Part shown: piece after piece, positions 3,964 to 21,438 of the stretch
Layout: each line of letters opens with the position of its first letter
Position numbering within the stretch: position 1 is the stretch's first letter
Virus record (IMG/VR): IMGVR_UViG_3300018065_000072
Coordinates: 1-23,990 of that record
Direction: 5' to 3' (one strand)
From: a virus
DNA length: 23,990 nucleotides
Notes under the pieces: model-generated
Seen by the model: only the letters and a program-made list of their open reading frames with translations
What the model was told of the DNA's origin: nothing
The model's database searches: none
Translations under genes and position numbers: made by a program

Positions 3964-3971
3964 TATAAATA
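3964..3971 (+). promoter_or_regulatory. T4-type late promoter (TATAAATA)
   Basis: An exact TATAAATA box lies in the short gap after the oxygenase-like gene, 31 bases before the ATG at 4003. It shares a CTTATAAATA context with the copies at 11058 and 21394. In T4 this sequence is read by the gp55 sigma factor with gp33 and the gp45 clamp. The next gene has AGGA at 3993-3996. Confidence 0.85.
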
Positions 3972-9903: not shown

Positions 9904-10247
9904 AAGATGAAAAAGAAAAAATAAAAAGTGATTATGAATATTCTCGCGATACTTATTATGAACTAATAGAAAAGGGAAGGGAATCGCTTGATCTAATGAT
10001 TGAGGTAGCACGTGAGTCAGAGCATCCACGTGCGTTCGAAGTTCTATCAAACATGATAAAAAACATTTCTGATGTGAATGATAAATTAATGGACTTGAAT
10101 AAAAAGAACAAAGATATCAATAGAGAAGAAACCAAGCAAGTCGGTGCAACCACAAATAACGTATTCATTGGATCTACTACCGACTTACAGAGATTATTAC
10201 AGAATGATTCTAAGGTGATTGACGGTGAGTCTACAAGAGAAGAATAA
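9900..10247 (+). CDS. gp16: Small terminase subunit gp16
   Basis: 115 residues; T4 gp16 is 164. The conserved core is present: YEYSRDTYYELIEKGRESLD, then ASEHPRAFEVL-type ESEHPRAFEVLSNMIKNI, then DVNDKLMDLNKKNKD, a helical hairpin that oligomerises into the ring which stimulates the gp17 ATPase. The C-terminal VFIGSTTDLQRLL phrase is also family-conserved. It overlaps gp15 by 4 bases and gp17 by about 23 bases. Confidence 0.92.
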   Translation: MKDEKEKIKSDYEYSRDTYYELIEKGRESLDLMIEVARESEHPRAFEVLSNMIKNISDVNDKLMDLNKKNKDINREETKQVGATTNNVFIGSTTDLQRLLQNDSKVIDGESTREE

Positions 10248-11190
10248 TTACCTCGGTAATCCGAATGTCAAACGCGACGGCATAAAGGAAGAGTGGACCG
10301 AGGAGAAGGTTCGTGAATATGCTAAATGCATGAAGGATCCTGCATACTTTGCAAAAACCTACGTTAAAATTATATCTCTTGACAAAGGATTAGTCAACTT
10401 TAATTTATATCCTTATCAAGAAAAAATGTTTCATCACTTTAACGACAATCGGTTCTCTATTGTTCTCGCCTGTCGTCAATCAGGTAAATCCATTTCTTCG
10501 GTTGTGTACCTTCTCTGGTATTCTATCTTTCATCCAGAAAAAACTATTGCGGTCCTTGCCAACAAAGGTGCTACTGCTAGGGAGATGCTTGCTCGTGTCA
10601 CACTGGCCCTTGAAAACTTACCGTTCTTTCTTCAACCTGGTTGTCGTGCGCTTAATAAAGGATCGATTGAATTTAGCAATAATTCTCGCATCATTGCTGC
10701 TGCTACTTCTGGTAGTTCTATCCGAGGAATGTCAGTCAACCTCTTGTTCCTCGACGAGTTTGCGTTCGTGGAGCGTGCCGCTGAGTTCTATACCTCTACT
10801 TATCCCGTAATTTCTTCGGGTAAGAATACAAAGGTTATCATAACCTCTACTGCAAATGGTATTGGGAATACTTTTCACAAAATATGGGAAGGAGCAGTCC
10901 AAGGAATCAATGAATTCAAACCATTTGAAGTAAATTGGTGGGACGTGCCTGGCAGAGACGAGGAGTGGAAACGTCAAACAATAGCAAATACTTCGCAGTT
11001 GCAGTTCGACCAAGAATTTGGCAATTGCTTAGAAAGTCGTTCCCAAATAACTATTCTTATAAATAATATTATATACGAAATAAGAATAGGCGATTTATAT
11101 GACTGTATCAGAACAAGAGAAACACTTGGTCTACCTTTTGAAGAGGAAGTCAGACTCAAAGCAATACGTTGGTATCACCATACAACGTAG
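10225..11190 (+). CDS. gp17: Large terminase gp17, N-terminal (ATPase) half fused to a short N-intein
   Basis: I prefer GTG 10225 (AAGG 10212-10215, 9 bases away); TTG 10219 is the alternative. From GTG 10225, residues 1-267 are terminase: NPNVKRDGIKEEWTEEKV, Walker A CRQSGKS (83-89), Walker B LLFLDEFAF (173-181), the coupling segment KVIITSTANG and LQFDQEFGN. At codon 11026 the terminase stops matching and a new sequence begins with Cys: CLESRSQITILIN to IRIGDLYD. This aligns with the short N-intein of AceL-TerL (as I recall it, starting CVYGDTMV and ending IKIEDLYKRLA). The frame continues for about 28 further residues to TAG 11188-11190, overlapping the endonuclease gene in another frame; that tail has no obvious counterpart. 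The rest of gp17 is encoded from about 11803. Packaging activity would need trans-splicing of both halves. Confidence 0.9.
   Translation: MSLQEKNNYLGNPNVKRDGIKEEWTEEKVREYAKCMKDPAYFAKTYVKIISLDKGLVNFNLYPYQEKMFHHFNDNRFSIVLACRQSGKSISSVVYLLWYSIFHPEKTIAVLANKGATAREMLARVTLALENLPFFLQPGCRALNKGSIEFSNNSRIIAAATSGSSIRGMSVNLLFLDEFAFVERAAEFYTSTYPVISSGKNTKVIITSTANGIGNTFHKIWEGAVQGINEFKPFEVNWWDVPGRDEEWKRQTIANTSQLQFDQEFGNCLESRSQITILINNIIYEIRIGDLYDCIRTRETLGLPFEEEVRLKAIRWYHHTT
11051..11089 (+). promoter_or_regulatory. RNA hairpin predicted to hide the endonuclease ribosome-binding site
   Basis: CTATTCTTAT (11051-11060) and ATAAGAATAG (11080-11089) are a perfect 10-bp inverted repeat with a 19-base loop. The 3' arm contains most of the AGG (11088-11090) that lies 8 bases before the ATG at 11099. 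The late promoter box at 11058-11065 overlaps the end of the 5' arm and the loop. Late transcripts would begin near 11071 and lack the 5' arm. Confidence 0.72.
11058..11065 (+). promoter_or_regulatory. T4-type late promoter (TATAAATA) inside the N-intein
   Basis: An exact TATAAATA box lies within the N-intein coding sequence, 33 bases before the endonuclease ATG. It has the same TTCTTATAAATA-like context as the other late promoters of the window. It would drive the endonuclease gene and the downstream C-half of gp17 independently of the upstream operon. Confidence 0.8.
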
Positions 11191-11821
11191 GTTCAAGATT
11201 AGAATGGGCGACCACAAAAGGTCCAATCGTTTTAAGGGCGATGAGTTTGAAGTACAGATATTGGAAGAATCGCATGATAGAAATTACATTGAGAGTAGAG
11301 AAGAATATTGGATAGAAAATCTCAATACGTATCGAGATGGTTTAAACGAATCTCCTTCCGGTAAAGGGTATGGACACAATTCTCCCAATTTTACTACTCT
11401 AGGTTACAAGTTTTCCGACGAACAAAGGGATAGAATGTCTAAGTCGGCAAAAGAGCGTGCTAAAAGAGAAGGGTTTGAAGTTAGGTCGAAACGAAGCAAG
11501 GACAATTACAAGGATCCTGAATACTTGAAGAAACAAAAACAATCAAAATCCGGAAAAAGGTTAAGACCTCCAAAACTCTCAGATGATCAAGTTGACGAGA
11601 TCAGAGATACTTTCGCAAAAGAACTAGAAGAAATAAAACAAGAACTGATTTATGTTAATGAAGAAAGAAGAAAGAAAAATTCTGGTTGGAGACCGATAAC
11701 ACCGTACTCTACGTTCGCTAGAAAATACTGCGATTATTATAATGTCTCAGCAAAATGCATTGAAAATATAGTGTCTGGAAAATCAAGAACTGAGAGGCTC
11801 CCATCGATATACAAATCTTAA
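11099..11821 (+). CDS. GIY-YIG homing endonuclease between the two gp17 halves
   Basis: 240 residues in a different frame from both gp17 halves. The GIY-YIG core is residues 8-90: VYL (11-13), YVG (23-25), Arg residues near 30-35 in a segment matching the catalytic Arg region, Glu near 68 in the REEYWIENLN helix, and LNESPSGKG (82-90). A NUMOD3-like stretch follows (GYKFSDEQRDRMSKSAKER, 102-120), then a basic linker. The C-terminal STFARKYCDYYNVSAKCIENIVSGK is a helix-turn-helix of the kind homing endonucleases use to bind target DNA. It probably cuts intact gp17 alleles and spreads the split arrangement. The ribosome-binding site is weak (AGG) and lies in a hairpin. Its 5' end overlaps the N-half frame by 92 bases; its stop overlaps the start of the C-intein frame. 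Confidence 0.9.
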   Translation: MTVSEQEKHLVYLLKRKSDSKQYVGITIQRRFKIRMGDHKRSNRFKGDEFEVQILEESHDRNYIESREEYWIENLNTYRDGLNESPSGKGYGHNSPNFTTLGYKFSDEQRDRMSKSAKERAKREGFEVRSKRSKDNYKDPEYLKKQKQSKSGKRLRPPKLSDDQVDEIRDTFAKELEEIKQELIYVNEERRKKNSGWRPITPYSTFARKYCDYYNVSAKCIENIVSGKSRTERLPSIYKS

Positions 11822-12099
11822 CACCTTCTGGGTTTCAGAAGTTTCATGGTGTCAATCGTTATTGGCATGATTACGGGTTTCGTTTCGTGTTTGAAGACGG
11901 CACTGAACTCTGCACTGCAATTAATCATAAATTCTTCGTCGGAGGACGAATTCAATTTGCAAAAGAAATATTTGCTGGGGACGATATAGGAAAGGTTGTT
12001 GTTCGGAGAGAAGTTTGCGAGGGGCAATATTTTTACGACCCTTTGAACGTGGAAAACGGTAGAGTTTACAATCACGATAAACTGTTTACTTCCCACAAC
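11803..12099 (+). other. C-intein segment (IntC) of a split intein
   Basis: About 99 residues if translation starts at 11803; AceL-TerL IntC is about 104. It ends His-Asn (12094-12099) and the first extein residue is Thr (ACG 12100). The block B position usually filled by Thr (TxxH), or Ser in AceL-TerL, reads Ala in AINH. The penultimate His and terminal Asn needed for C-terminal cleavage are present. Confidence 0.82.
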
Positions 12100-12906
12100 A
12101 CGTTCTTTGGTACTGGCGACACTCTTATTAATGCAGAGACGCTTCTTTCTCTCAGAGCAAAACCACCCAAGAGCGTAAGGGAAAATGGATCCTTTTTGGT
12201 TTATGAAGAACCAGAAAGAGGGCATGAGTATATAACTCTTGTTGATGTTTCTAAAGGAAGAGGACAGGATTATTCGACGTTTAACGTCATTGACATCAGC
12301 ACAACTCCCTTTCGGCAAGTTGCTGTGTATCGGAACAACACTATTTCTCCAATACTCTTTCCAAATATTATTTATAAATACGCAACAGTTTATAACAACT
12401 CTTATGTGGTGATTGAATCAAACGATCAAGGTTCTGTTGTTTGTAATGGTCTTTACTACGACCTTGAATATGAGAACGTTCATGTCACCAGTGCAGTGAA
12501 AGCAAACTCTATTGGTATTGAAATAAATCGGAAGACAAAACGTCTTGGGTGCTCAGCAATCAAAGATATTTTAGAAAATAGAAAGTTGGACATAGTTGAC
12601 GAGAACACTATCCTAGAGATTAGCACCTTTGTTGCAAAGGGTCAATCCTACGAAGCATCTGACGGAAATCATGACGACCTCATGATGAATCTTGTCATGT
12701 TTGGATATTTTGCGTCGACGCAATTTTTCTCTGACATGACTGACATAAACCTAAAACAAATGTTATTTGAAGAAAGGATGAAAAACATAGAGGAGGATAT
12801 TCCTCCATTCGGATTCATAGACGACGGAACCTCTTATATCGAAGAGATCGAAAATAAGGAAAAGCATAACATTGCTTGGGTCGATTACGATCCGAGAGAG
12901 TTCTAA
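11803..12906 (+). CDS. gp17: C-intein fused to large terminase gp17 C-terminal (nuclease) half
   Basis: The frame is open from 11794 (after TGA 11791) to TAA 12904-12906. No ATG, GTG or TTG occurs before GTG 11887, yet the residues upstream of 11887 (IQILTPSGFQKFHGV, YGFRFVFEDG) match the C-intein of AceL-TerL, so I place the start at ATC 11803, 5 bases after GAGG (11794-11797). This is tentative. C-intein features: GTELCTAINHKFF (block B), FAKEIFAGDDIGKV, YDPLNVENGRVYN (block F) and LFTSHN (block G), cut before Thr at 12100. The extein (268 residues) starts TFFGTGDTLINAETL and carries the nuclease motifs VDVSKGRGQDYS, VVIESNDQG and GNHDDLMMNLVMFG, matching T4 gp17 Asp401, Glu458 and Asp542 regions. 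Spliced gp17 would be about 535 residues. Confidence 0.85.
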   Translation: MDIQILTPSGFQKFHGVNRYWHDYGFRFVFEDGTELCTAINHKFFVGGRIQFAKEIFAGDDIGKVVVRREVCEGQYFYDPLNVENGRVYNHDKLFTSHNTFFGTGDTLINAETLLSLRAKPPKSVRENGSFLVYEEPERGHEYITLVDVSKGRGQDYSTFNVIDISTTPFRQVAVYRNNTISPILFPNIIYKYATVYNNSYVVIESNDQGSVVCNGLYYDLEYENVHVTSAVKANSIGIEINRKTKRLGCSAIKDILENRKLDIVDENTILEISTFVAKGQSYEASDGNHDDLMMNLVMFGYFASTQFFSDMTDINLKQMLFEERMKNIEEDIPPFGFIDDGTSYIEEIENKEKHNIAWVDYDPREF

Positions 12907-12917
12907 AAAAAATATAT

Positions 12918-12925
12918 TATAAATA
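12918..12925 (+). promoter_or_regulatory. T4-type late promoter (TATAAATA) for gp18
   Basis: An exact TATAAATA lies in the 80-base gap between the gp17 C-half and gp18, preceded by an A-rich run. It is 61 bases before the gp18 ATG, which has AAGGA at 12974-12978. Confidence 0.85.
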
Positions 12926-12986: not shown

Positions 12987-14771
12987 ATGGCACTATTCTC
13001 ACCGTCTGCTTCTCCTGCAGTCACAGTTAGAGAGATTGATCTTACTGGCGTTTCGCCAAATGTAAGCACCTCTACTGGGGCATTTGTAGGAAACTTTCGT
13101 TGGGGTCCGGTAAATGATCGCACGCTAGTCGCAGACGAGTCTGGTCTAGTGACAGCATTTGCTGCTCCTGACGAAAACAATTCAGTAGATTTTCACTCTG
13201 CTGCTTACTTTCTAAGATATTCCGATTCACTCTTCATTGTTCGTGGAAATAATGGTGGTGTCAATGCTCACTCTGCCGCAGTCAAATTAAGTGACTCTGC
13301 AGTTGTAGAGAACCTAACTGATTGGGAAACTACAGTCAAAGGTGCAGTAGGCGAATCCGGACTTAAAACTGGTTCTTTCATTGCAAAGTATCCTGGTTCG
13401 CTCGGTAATGCTCTCAGCGTTTCTTTCTGCCCTGCTAATGATTCCGCTGGTGCTAACTACTTCGGTGCCTGGTCTTATGCGAACTCCTTCGATGGTGCTC
13501 CTGGAACTTCTACTTGGGCAGCTGCTCGTGGTGGTTCTAAAGACGAGGTTCACGTTGCGGTTATTGACCGAACTGGTGCGTTTACAGGAACTCCAAACAC
13601 GGTTCTTGAAACGTTCCCTTATCTCTCAGTTGCCAAAAACGCAGTGACACCAGATGGTTCTCCGAACTACATTTCTGACGTAATCAACAATCGTTCTCAG
13701 TATGTTTGGAACGGATACTTCGGTGACGACTCTGCTTTCGGTTCTTCTTACGAAAATATTGGTCAGAACTGGGGTAAGACTACTAGCGTAGATTCTAACG
13801 TTGATTATAGTGTCGGAACAAGTGCTTGGACAGACACTGTTTCTAAGATTAACCTTGGTGGTGGTGTTGCTTCTTCTGCCCTAACTGTTGGACAAATTGC
13901 TACAGCGTTCGATAAGTTTGAAGACACAGAAACTGTTACTGTCGACTTCCTTATCGCCCCTCAAGTTACCGATGATTCTGATGCAGCAACTGTAATCAAC
14001 GACATAGTTTCGATTGCTGCTGCTCGAAAAGATTGCGTTGTTACTGCTTCTCCAAACAGAGCAGCAGTAGTTGGTAATGCTAATCCGGTAACTGCAACTG
14101 TTACGTTTGCGAGTGCACTAACTAGATCTTCATACTTGATCGTTGATAATAACTACTTGAAAGTTTTCGACAAGTATAACGATCAATATGTAAACATTCC
14201 GGCTGCTTCTAGCACTGCGGGAATCATGGCGGCAACGGACCTTGTTGCAGCACCTTGGTTCTCTCCTGCAGGACAAAGAAGAGGCAATTATCTCGGAATT
14301 ACGGATATTGTAACAAACCCGAATAAAACACAAAGAGATACTCTCTATAAAGCAGGAATCAACCCAATTGCGAACATTCCTGGATCTGGCGTTATTCTCT
14401 TTGGAGATAAGACGTTTGAAGGTAGACCTTCTGCATTCGACAGAATTAATGTTCGTCGTCTCTTCCTTGCGATTGAGCGTTCGATTGCTCAAGCAGGTAA
14501 GAATATCATGTTCGAATTCAATGACGAGTTTACTCGTGCCGAATTCGTAAACGTTGTTGAACCTTTGCTTCGTGAGATTCGCGGTCGTAGAGGTATCACT
14601 GACTTCAGAGTCGTTTGTGACGAAACAAACAATACTCCTGCTGTCATCGATAGAAATGAATTTGTTGCAAGCATCTTCATCAAACCTGCTCGTTCAATTA
14701 ACTTCGTGACGCTAAACTTCGTCGCAGTGAGAACAGGTGTTGAGTTTGAAGAAGTTGTTGGCACGGTTTAA
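12987..14771 (+). CDS. gp18: Tail sheath protein gp18
   Basis: 594 residues; T4 gp18 is 659. The N-end LFSPSASPAVTVREIDLTGV and TGAFVGNFRWGPVNDRTLV are characteristic of gp18. The C-terminal region GINPIANIPGSGVILFGDKT, RRLFLAIERSIAQAGKNIMFE and LREIRGRRGITDFRVVCD is the conserved contractile-sheath core that packs on the tube. Shorter protruding middle domains explain the length difference. It has its own late promoter and a good AAGGA site, in line with high copy number (138 per T4 tail). The tube gene follows 17 bases later. Confidence 0.96.
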   Translation: MALFSPSASPAVTVREIDLTGVSPNVSTSTGAFVGNFRWGPVNDRTLVADESGLVTAFAAPDENNSVDFHSAAYFLRYSDSLFIVRGNNGGVNAHSAAVKLSDSAVVENLTDWETTVKGAVGESGLKTGSFIAKYPGSLGNALSVSFCPANDSAGANYFGAWSYANSFDGAPGTSTWAAARGGSKDEVHVAVIDRTGAFTGTPNTVLETFPYLSVAKNAVTPDGSPNYISDVINNRSQYVWNGYFGDDSAFGSSYENIGQNWGKTTSVDSNVDYSVGTSAWTDTVSKINLGGGVASSALTVGQIATAFDKFEDTETVTVDFLIAPQVTDDSDAATVINDIVSIAAARKDCVVTASPNRAAVVGNANPVTATVTFASALTRSSYLIVDNNYLKVFDKYNDQYVNIPAASSTAGIMAATDLVAAPWFSPAGQRRGNYLGITDIVTNPNKTQRDTLYKAGINPIANIPGSGVILFGDKTFEGRPSAFDRINVRRLFLAIERSIAQAGKNIMFEFNDEFTRAEFVNVVEPLLREIRGRRGITDFRVVCDETNNTPAVIDRNEFVASIFIKPARSINFVTLNFVAVRTGVEFEEVVGTV

Positions 14772-20502: not shown

Positions 20503-20528
20503 AAGGGGGACTTCGGTCCCCCTTTTTT
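20503..20528 (+). terminator. Strong intrinsic terminator after gp23 (UUCG tetraloop)
   Basis: AAGGGGGAC (20503-20511), TTCG loop, GTCCCCCTT (20516-20524), then a T-run to 20528. A smaller stem GCAGG/CCTGC (20480-20494) lies just upstream. The T-run overlaps the stop codon of the convergent methylase gene. Confidence 0.93.
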
Positions 20529-21381
20529 ATGCCTCCAAAACGCTAAGAGCAGGAGTTTCATAGTTAAGGCAGAGAAGTTCTTTACGACTTTTCTGTTCTT
20601 GTAGATAAGCACCTCTGCTTTGCATCGTATAAGTTAGATCCCATTCGCGTTGATCCCATCCCTTGAACCAACCTCGAATATGCTCATTAGAATTGTAGGT
20701 GACCATCATCATACAATTTCGTTTGCAAAGTTCTTCTGCAAACTGCATATGATCAAACCCTTTGTGCATATTGCCTTTTTTTCCATAGAGAGAGGACTTG
20801 ATATCATAAGGAGGATCTAGGAAGACAAATACGTTAGGATCATCAGAAAGAAGTTCAGTATAGTTTCGGTTGGTAATCTTCCAGTGTTGAATCAATTTGC
20901 TGTAATATTTAAGAGACTCGCAGGCATTCACAGACCAGTTGCTATCCGACGCCATCTTAGAGAAACTAGAACTTTCTCCTAGACCCGAGAAAGATGCTTT
21001 GTTTAAAATAAAAAACCGCCACGCGATTTCAAATGGATCTTCCCACGGTTGATTGATGTCGTTTTTACATTCAACGAAAAGATTTTTAGCAGAATCGTGA
21101 TCTGCGTGATCCATCTTCATTTTAAGAGAATGCTCAGCAAGTCTTTCGCCATCATCACGAAGGACTTTCCAAAAACAAAACAAATTATAATATTTGTCAT
21201 TGACCCAAACAGGCGTTTCAGGGTATAATTTACTAAATGCAATTGCAGGACTGCCTCCTCCAAGGAAAGGTTCGCGATATTCTTGAATCTTAACAAGAGG
21301 CATATTTTCTGGAGAAAAGAGAAAATTAACTGCTCGAGATTTTCCGCCAGGATATCGCAGTGGAGACTTAAGTTTCTTCAT
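20527..21381 (-). CDS. DNA adenine methylase (D12 class, Dam-like)
   Basis: 284 residues from ATG 21381 (AGAGG 7 bases upstream on the minus strand); the longer frame to 21438 would start inside the divergent gene. Motifs: LRYPGGKSRA (8-17), EPFLGGGSPAIAF (S-adenosylmethionine site, 37-49), WVNDKYYNLF, LNKASFSGLGES and the catalytic FLDPPYD (DPPY 189-192). It transfers methyl to N6 of adenine. The target is not readable; T4 Dam uses GATC, and GATC is common in this window, so no avoidance is apparent. It is the only minus-strand gene here, convergent with gp23 and divergent from the next tail gene, with its own sigma70-like promoter, so it is probably an acquired cassette expressed early. Confidence 0.9.
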   Translation of the reverse strand: MKKLKSPLRYPGGKSRAVNFLFSPENMPLVKIQEYREPFLGGGSPAIAFSKLYPETPVWVNDKYYNLFCFWKVLRDDGERLAEHSLKMKMDHADHDSAKNLFVECKNDINQPWEDPFEIAWRFFILNKASFSGLGESSSFSKMASDSNWSVNACESLKYYSKLIQHWKITNRNYTELLSDDPNVFVFLDPPYDIKSSLYGKKGNMHKGFDHMQFAEELCKRNCMMMVTYNSNEHIRGWFKGWDQREWDLTYTMQSRGAYLQEQKSRKELLCLNYETPALSVLEA

Positions 21382-21393
21382 GTAAAAACCTCT

Positions 21394-21401
21394 TATAAAT
21401 A
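21394..21401 (+). promoter_or_regulatory. T4-type late promoter (TATAAATA), divergent from the methylase promoter
   Basis: An exact TATAAATA in a CTTATAAATA context, 30 bases before the ATG at 21432. It lies in the methylase 5' leader, so early minus-strand and late plus-strand transcription overlap here. Confidence 0.82.
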
Positions 21402-21409
21402 GAAAGGTA

Positions 21410-21438
21410 ATTATACCACCTAGGTGAAAAAATGGCAA
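21410..21438 (-). promoter_or_regulatory. Sigma70-like promoter for the methylase gene
   Basis: Read on the minus strand: TTGCCA (-35, 21438-21433), a 17-base spacer, TATAAT (-10, 21415-21410), with TGG just before the -10 giving an extended TGnTATAAT. The start would be near 21403, about 22 bases before the methylase ATG. The -35 lies in the first codons of the divergent gene. Confidence 0.75.
21417..21426. other. 10-bp palindrome between divergent promoters
   Basis: CACCTAGGTG is a perfect palindrome. It sits in the spacer between -35 and -10 of the minus-strand promoter and overlaps the AGG ribosome-binding site of the plus-strand gene. It could be an operator, but this is unproven and 10-bp palindromes also occur by chance. 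Confidence 0.35.

What the first reader, a model, noticed from the sequence alone, without database searches (positions are those of the whole stretch)
11051..11101. Hairpin plus embedded late promoter: an I-TevI-like switch for the homing endonuclease, written inside an intein
Seen: a perfect 10-bp inverted repeat (11051-11060 with 11080-11089), a TATAAATA box at 11058-11065 overlapping the 5' arm, and the AGG ribosome-binding site touching the 3' arm, 8 bases before the ATG. Known: in the T4 td intron, I-TevI is kept silent on readthrough mRNA by a hairpin that hides its ribosome-binding site, and a late promoter within the stem makes mRNA lacking the 5' arm. Inference: the same logic arose here, but in protein-coding intein sequence that must also encode the N-intein. 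The extra INNI residues relative to AceL-TerL fall exactly on the promoter.
Basis: partly seen in the sequence, partly recalled or inferred. Interest (0 to 1): 0.82.

Follow-up and report, generated by a model that had tools for sequence, protein, structure and literature searches.

The report
Hidden switch inside a split intein
In a group of marine T4-like viruses, the DNA that encodes a self-splicing protein fragment also carries a promoter and a conserved RNA hairpin that probably control an overlapping gene-drive enzyme (a homing endonuclease), a known T4-type control scheme fitted into protein-coding sequence.

Summary
That ORF is nested, in another frame, in the N-half of a split TerL intein. 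TATAAATA is the late-promoter octamer of these phages. Relatives in IMG/VR are the decisive test. Six clade-A sequences (endonuclease 57-100% identical, plus one with a decayed endonuclease) keep all ten pairs; two of them carry compensatory double changes made by amino-acid-changing substitutions. A sister clade keeps the promoter but occludes the start region with a different pairing register. Endonuclease starts are predicted to be more occluded on long transcripts than other late genes of the same phages (P = 0.0008, not corrected for phylogeny). So an I-TevI/mobE-like arrangement is likely. Not shown: a late start near 11071, translational repression, or an early/late timing role. TerL is itself a late gene, and the hairpin lies inside a translated ORF, unlike I-TevI's. 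The 'extra INNI' argument fails: relatives without the promoter have longer loops there. Verdict: a real, conserved new variant of a known kind, with mechanism inferred.

The parts
10219..11025 (+). TerL (gp17) N-extein, ATPase half; exact start codon uncertain
   Evidence: Pfam Terminase_6N 2.7e-18; 89% and 79% identical to L004 and L008 over the N ORF
11026..11103 (+). Core of the N-intein (Cys1 ... GDLYD); the frame stays open to the stop at 11188-11190
   Evidence: Cys directly after EFGN; intein-less allele EFGN|TFFGTG in phage C48C1; alignment of N-inteins
11051..11060 (+). 5' arm of the hairpin (CTATTCTTAT)
   Evidence: pair probability 0.98 in all transcript lengths tried
11058..11065 (+). 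Late-promoter octamer TATAAATA
   Evidence: cyanomyovirus late motif NATAAATA in PMC2984593
11071..11071 (+). Predicted late transcription start (octamer = -13 to -6)
   Evidence: inference from T4 geometry (PMC2988020); not measured
11080..11089 (+). 3' arm of the hairpin (ATAAGAATAG), covering the first two bases of the SD
11088..11090 (+). Weak Shine-Dalgarno AGG, 8 nt before ATG
   Evidence: predicted free 0.25-0.32 on long transcripts and 0.72 on the late transcript
11099..11821 (+). GIY-YIG homing-endonuclease ORF (240 aa), overlapping the N-intein frame for 92 nt and the C-intein frame at its end
   Evidence: Pfam GIY-YIG 1.1e-7, above cut-off; PHROG 314 homing endonuclease 4.4e-15; relatives share the start
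11803..12099 (+). C-intein; start codon uncertain (no ATG/GTG/TTG in frame before 11887; ATC 11803 with GAGAGG upstream is the best candidate)
   Evidence: C-intein profile matches CatC, PDB 6dsl_B, 2.3e-16
12100..12906 (+). TerL C-extein (nuclease half)
   Evidence: Pfam Terminase_6C 2.3e-16
12918..12925 (+). Next late-promoter octamer, before the tail sheath gene at 12987 (reference for promoter geometry)

Best explanation
A phage-encoded GIY-YIG homing endonuclease gene is nested out of frame in the split TerL intein. Its start region, which is also N-intein coding sequence, carries a gp55-type late promoter and an RNA hairpin. On long transcripts that read through from upstream late genes, the hairpin pairs with the weak Shine-Dalgarno (and, in a sister clade, with the start-codon region), so the endonuclease is translated poorly. 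Transcripts that begin at the embedded promoter (about 11071) lack the 5' arm, leave the start free and express the endonuclease, together with the downstream TerL C-half. Shown by sequence: the elements, their conservation, compensatory changes and the control comparison. Inferred: promoter activity, repression, and its purpose (dosing the endonuclease separately from the abundant TerL message, and keeping endonuclease initiation from colliding with TerL-N translation), rather than strict early/late timing.
For: Promoter: octamer (or one-base variant) at a constant 33-nt distance from the endonuclease ATG in all clade-A and clade-B haplotypes and L033, while the same octamer precedes virion genes by 16-70 nt in the same contigs. 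Exact TATAAATA in 9 of 13 haplotypes; TATAAGTA, AATAAATA or GATAAATA in the rest. The Ile codon inside it is ATA in 13 of 13 although the neighbouring Ile codon varies. Stem: clade A (window, L014, L018, L019, L021, L065) keeps 10/10 pairs. L018/L019 differ from the window by C-G to U-A and U-A to G-C, via Leu CTT to Cys TGT and Arg AGA to Gln CAA. Nine haplotypes: 91.1% of cells paired versus 34-56% when slid; 8 double-change cells versus at most 4; 0 of 500 shuffles reach it. Sister clade B pairs TATAAAT with ATTTATA(TG) and CTATAG with CTATAG (pair probability 0.69-0.95) and frees the SD on the late transcript in three of four. Control: SD free on long transcripts 0.14 for 10 endonuclease starts versus 0.43 for 20 other late starts of the same phages, P = 0.0008; gain on late transcripts P = 0.02. 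After endonuclease deletion in L064 the octamer reads TATGAATA and the stem is broken.
Against: No expression data. With all 13 haplotypes the single register is less impressive (82% paired; covariation reached by 29 of 500 shuffles), and the number of independent compensatory events is small (about 3-4). Opening energies against synonymous recoding are only marginal (window P 0.033; L014, L021, L065, L033 not significant). Two of ten endonuclease starts (L021, L032) stay occluded on the modelled late transcript. L033 breaks the stem; L065 keeps it although its endonuclease is truncated; L197 keeps the octamer without any endonuclease. The hairpin is inside a translated ORF, so ribosomes could unwind it.
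Confidence: 0.6

Rival explanations
1. The embedded late promoter is real but serves mainly the TerL C-half (C-intein plus nuclease domain), which a split gene must supply in balance with the N-half; the inverted repeat is incidental or minor.
For: A transcript from 11071 runs through the endonuclease into the C-half, and the next octamer before a gene is only at 12918. L065-L068 keep the promoter region although the endonuclease is a 50-aa remnant, and there the C-half is still a separate ORF.
Against: The octamer sits at a fixed 33 nt before the endonuclease ATG; the stem covaries; L197 has a fused single-ORF TerL and still carries the octamer.
Confidence: 0.15
2. Coincidence: AT-rich codons for a beta-hairpin (T-I-L-I ... 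E-I-R-I) make complementary arms and a TATAAATA-like string by chance.
For: Given the amino acids, 10/10 pairs has P of 0.007-0.055 per sequence; folding energy z = -1.14; the endonuclease's own codon usage favours ATA (0.48).
Against: Compensatory nonsynonymous changes with an intact stem; arms of the window and L021 identical (20/20) while the loop differs; occlusion is specific to endonuclease starts among late genes.
Confidence: 0.12
3. Ribosome-coupled activation instead of repression: ribosomes translating TerL-N melt the hairpin and thereby license endonuclease initiation, as coat translation opens the MS2 replicase start (own knowledge).
For: The TerL-N frame runs through the hairpin and stops 98 nt after its 3' arm.
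Against: A dedicated promoter that removes the 5' arm would then be unnecessary; local hairpins should refold between ribosomes (inference).
Confidence: 0.08
4. The repeat is a DNA operator: the endonuclease or another dimeric protein binds the two arms and represses the promoter, as I-TevI autorepresses at its operator.
For: The arms flank the predicted transcription start, and I-TevI operators overlap its late promoter (PMC2988022).
Against: No similarity of the region to the intein-less TerL site (alignment score equal to the shuffle median); a G-U pair is tolerated in L014; the sister clade changes register but still covers the start, as RNA logic predicts.
Confidence: 0.05

Closest known systems
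I-TevI in the T4 td intron (also I-TevII and I-TevIII)
   Same: GIY-YIG endonuclease (I-TevI, I-TevII); RBS-blocking hairpin with a late promoter placed so that late RNA lacks the 5' arm (PMC2988022)
   Different: Element is a split intein, not an intron; the hairpin is in translated, dual-frame coding sequence; the host gene is late rather than early/middle; no operator-like site detected
mobE in nrdA of phage Aeh1, and T4 segB
   Same: Free-standing endonuclease genes with a hairpin over the RBS and a late promoter; mobE is embedded in its host gene (PMC2988022; PMC3014915)
   Different: Those are not inteins; mobE is HNH. The overlap with the intein reading frame is the new element
T4 gene e / soc type late translation control
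   Same: Late promoter in the 5' strand of an inhibitory structure; TATAAATA upstream of e (PMC3014915)
   Different: Phage genes of their own, not mobile elements, and not described there as written inside another protein's coding sequence
Atypical split TerL inteins (AceL-TerL, GOS-TerL, Cat)
   Same: TerL host; very short N-intein, Cys1 in AceL and Cat; C-intein of about 100 aa; profile match to CatC 6dsl_B; described in PMC11766414
   Different: Here the endonuclease ORF overlaps the N-intein out of frame and carries its own promoter and hairpin; the N-intein frame is longer (about 54 codons)
Fractured genes (split intein halves with a free-standing endonuclease gene; Dassa et al. 2009, cited in PMC10448857, itself not held here)
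   Same: Split intein halves with an endonuclease gene between them (from own knowledge of the paper)

Membership tests
T4-type hairpin-controlled homing endonuclease (I-TevI/mobE class) | Homing-endonuclease catalytic domain | tested here: met
   Pfam GIY-YIG 1.1e-7 above cut-off; PHROG homing endonuclease 4.4e-15
T4-type hairpin-controlled homing endonuclease (I-TevI/mobE class) | RNA structure covering the RBS on long transcripts, conserved in relatives | tested here: met
   (prediction and covariation; exceptions L033 in this register and L028)
T4-type hairpin-controlled homing endonuclease (I-TevI/mobE class) | Late promoter placed to delete the 5' arm | tested here: met
   Octamer position and census; promoter activity itself not measured
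T4-type hairpin-controlled homing endonuclease (I-TevI/mobE class) | Endonuclease translated from late but not from early/middle RNA | not testable with these tools
   No expression data; host gene TerL is itself late
T4-type hairpin-controlled homing endonuclease (I-TevI/mobE class) | Autorepressor operator resembling the homing site (I-TevI only, not class-defining) | tested here: not met
   Local alignment no better than shuffles
Atypical split TerL intein | Insertion in TerL with an intein-less allele at the same site | tested here: met
   C48C1 QEFGN|TFFGTG; matches cover both exteins
Atypical split TerL intein | Short N-intein with Cys1; C-intein ending His-Asn before a +1 nucleophile; homology to Cat | tested here: met
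   +1 residue is Thr here
Atypical split TerL intein | Trans-splicing activity | not testable with these tools
   needs experiment
T4-like late promoter | NATAAATA octamer upstream of late genes at a consistent distance | tested here: met
   PMC2984593
T4-like late promoter | gp55/gp33 homologues encoded in the same genome | not tested
   window is a 24-kb fragment; cyanomyoviruses in general carry g55, g33 and g45 (PMC2984593)

The most novel reading that the evidence does not exclude
One stretch of about 50 nucleotides carries four selected functions at once: N-intein sequence, a late promoter, an RNA hairpin, and the start of a second protein in another frame. RNA pairing drives coordinated amino-acid replacements in the intein (Leu/Arg to Cys/Gln), and a sister lineage has switched to a different pairing register while keeping the regulatory outcome.
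Probability: 0.42. Interest if true: 0.74.

Novelty: new variant of a known kind. Interest (0 to 1): 0.6.

Why it matters
If true, the T4-style hairpin/late-promoter control of homing endonucleases is used in inteins as well as introns and free-standing genes, and can be written inside coding sequence, where the mobile element must satisfy protein splicing, transcription and RNA structure together. It gives a natural test of whether such control exists for timing or for dosage and ribosome traffic, because here the host gene is late. It also gives a concrete case in which RNA structure appears to dictate amino-acid choice in an intein.

Tried and rejected
(1) Folding energy alone as evidence: not significant. 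(2) Opening energy against synonymous recoding: marginal, mixed across haplotypes. (3) One stem register for all relatives: fails for clade B, which led to the second register. (4) Operator similarity to the homing site: none. (5) Extra INNI as promoter insertion: rejected by the wider N-intein alignment. (6) A loose DNA pattern scan returned mostly unrelated contigs; a tighter N-intein pattern gave 25 contigs, most already in hand. (7) GTDB genomes hold only one partial C-intein match, so the system is viral. (8) gp55 was sought in S-SM2 as a query but was not in the two stretches fetched; not pursued. (9) N-intein against PDB sequences: too short, no hit. (10) Dassa 2009 and the Aeh1 mobE paper (Gibb & Edgell 2007) are not held.

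Full report
What is there. The window is a fragment of a T4-like myovirus (a virus record). TerL (gp17) is interrupted by a split intein. The N-extein ends EFGN, followed by Cys1 at 11026. The C-intein ends Ser-His-Asn at 12099 and the C-extein begins at 12100. The intein-less arrangement EFGN|TFFGTG is seen in phage C48C1. The C-intein profile matches CatC, the consensus engineered intein of the atypical TerL group, at 2.3e-16. Between the halves lies a 240-aa GIY-YIG homing endonuclease, read in another frame. Its ATG at 11099 is inside the conserved N-intein motif GDLYD, and the N-intein frame stays open for 92 nt into it.

The observation. The repeat is perfect, but the window has other repeats of this size and its folding energy is unremarkable. 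Judged from this sequence alone the case is suggestive, no more (P 0.025-0.054 given the protein sequence).

Promoter. TATAAATA is found 7 times against 1.08 expected. Five of the six plus-strand copies lie 27-62 nt before gene starts, and a similar pattern holds in related contigs. NATAAATA is the published late-promoter motif of cyanomyoviruses (PMC2984593), and T4 itself uses single-base variants (PMC2988020). In all clade-A and clade-B haplotypes and in L033 the octamer or a one-base variant is 33 nt before the endonuclease ATG. The Ile codon inside it is ATA in 13 of 13 haplotypes, while the neighbouring Ile codon varies between ATA, ATT and ATC. I regard the promoter as very likely real. 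The start at 11071 is inferred from T4 geometry.

Hairpin in relatives. Searches of IMG/VR with the endonuclease and the C-intein gave about 30 contigs with this nested arrangement. Clade A (window, L014, L018, L019, L021, L065) keeps all ten pairs. L018 and L019 differ from the window at both arms: CTT/AGA codons became TGT/CAA, so C-G became U-A and U-A became G-C, both by amino-acid replacement. L014 has a G-U. L028 and L245 keep an inner helix with further complementary changes. For nine haplotypes, 91% of cells are paired against at most 56% in any slid register, with 8 double-change cells and no shuffle of 500 reaching that; this set leaves out clade B, and with clade B included the figure is 82%. 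The window and L021 arms are identical although the endonucleases are 57% identical and the loop has changed.

A second register. Clade B (L022, L027, L030, L032 and near-identical contigs) keeps the promoter but not this stem. Instead the promoter strand TATAAAT pairs with ATTTATA at the start codon, with CTATAG pairing to CTATAG inside. The predicted probability is 0.69-0.95 in every transcript length tried, and the stem of clade A has 0.93-1.00 in its own members. Removing everything upstream of the predicted start frees the SD in most: window 0.25 to 0.80, L014 0.01 to 0.99, L027 0.01 to 0.58, L030 0.01 to 0.61. It does not in L021 or L032. L033 lacks both stems, yet its SD is predicted occluded on longer RNA and free on late RNA through other pairing. 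As a control, 20 other late starts in the same contigs are much less occluded on long RNA (0.43 against 0.14, P = 0.0008; not corrected for phylogeny).

Loss of the endonuclease. In L064 the endonuclease is gone, N- and C-intein form one 719-aa ORF, the octamer reads TATGAATA and the stem is broken. L197 also has a single ORF but keeps the octamer. L065-L068 carry a 50-aa endonuclease remnant and keep the stem. So decay follows loss in one of three cases, which is weak evidence either way.

How it probably works. On long messages from upstream promoters the start is covered; on messages from the embedded promoter it is open. This is the scheme described for I-TevI, shown for mobE and implied for segB (PMC2988022; PMC3014915). 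Three differences matter. TerL is a late gene and the nearest upstream octamer is at 3964, so timing is a less natural purpose than separate dosing. The hairpin is translated by TerL-N ribosomes, which allows coupling effects. And the promoter transcript also carries the TerL C-half, so it could help balance the split halves.

Standing. Shown: sequence features, conservation, complementary changes, second register, comparison with other late starts. Inferred: promoter activity, repression, purpose. The deepest relatives (L219, L225) lack the full arrangement and appear to start the endonuclease elsewhere, so the control scheme arose or survives in a subclade.

Noticed in passing
11794-11887: The C-intein frame has no ATG/GTG/TTG before 11887, although relatives (L018, L019, L022) have ATG. 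ATC at 11803 sits behind GAGAGG (GGAGAGG in L014), so a non-canonical start or a frameshift from the endonuclease may be used.
   Followed up: partly
L064 1582-3741 and L197: Contigs in which the endonuclease is deleted and the TerL intein is one continuous ORF: possible natural reversal of a split intein to a contiguous one.
   Followed up: partly
L065-L068: Identical truncated endonuclease (50 aa) with an intact hairpin: a decaying homing element.
   Followed up: partly
L036 989-3205 (Vibrio phage VP-1), L037, L227-L229: In these TerL inteins the GIY-YIG domain is fused in frame to the N-intein and only the C-intein is separate. VP-1 TerL appears to carry a second intein after its QSGK motif.
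   Followed up: partly
L230, L236, L238, 54 nt after the Cys codon: A different branch of the TerL split inteins, with another endonuclease, also has TATAAATA inside the N-intein, at another codon position, about 90 nt before the endonuclease ATG. Independent case or chance.
   Followed up: partly
L232, L251, L261-L264: Several other kinds of ORF, some with Zn-finger or HNH-like motifs by eye, occupy the gap between TerL intein halves in distant phages: one split site apparently reused by different endonuclease families.
   Followed up: no
290-2044: 584-aa protein built of short imperfect repeats (GNYTRISTRT, NFTGNYARNYAG), probably a fibre or structural protein.
   Followed up: no
20527-21438 (- strand): ORF resembling an adenine-specific DNA methylase (DPPY motif, by eye), on the opposite strand in the virion gene cluster.
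   Followed up: no
12369-12380: Two overlapping TATAAATA octamers on opposite strands inside the TerL C-half, with no gene start nearby.
   Followed up: no
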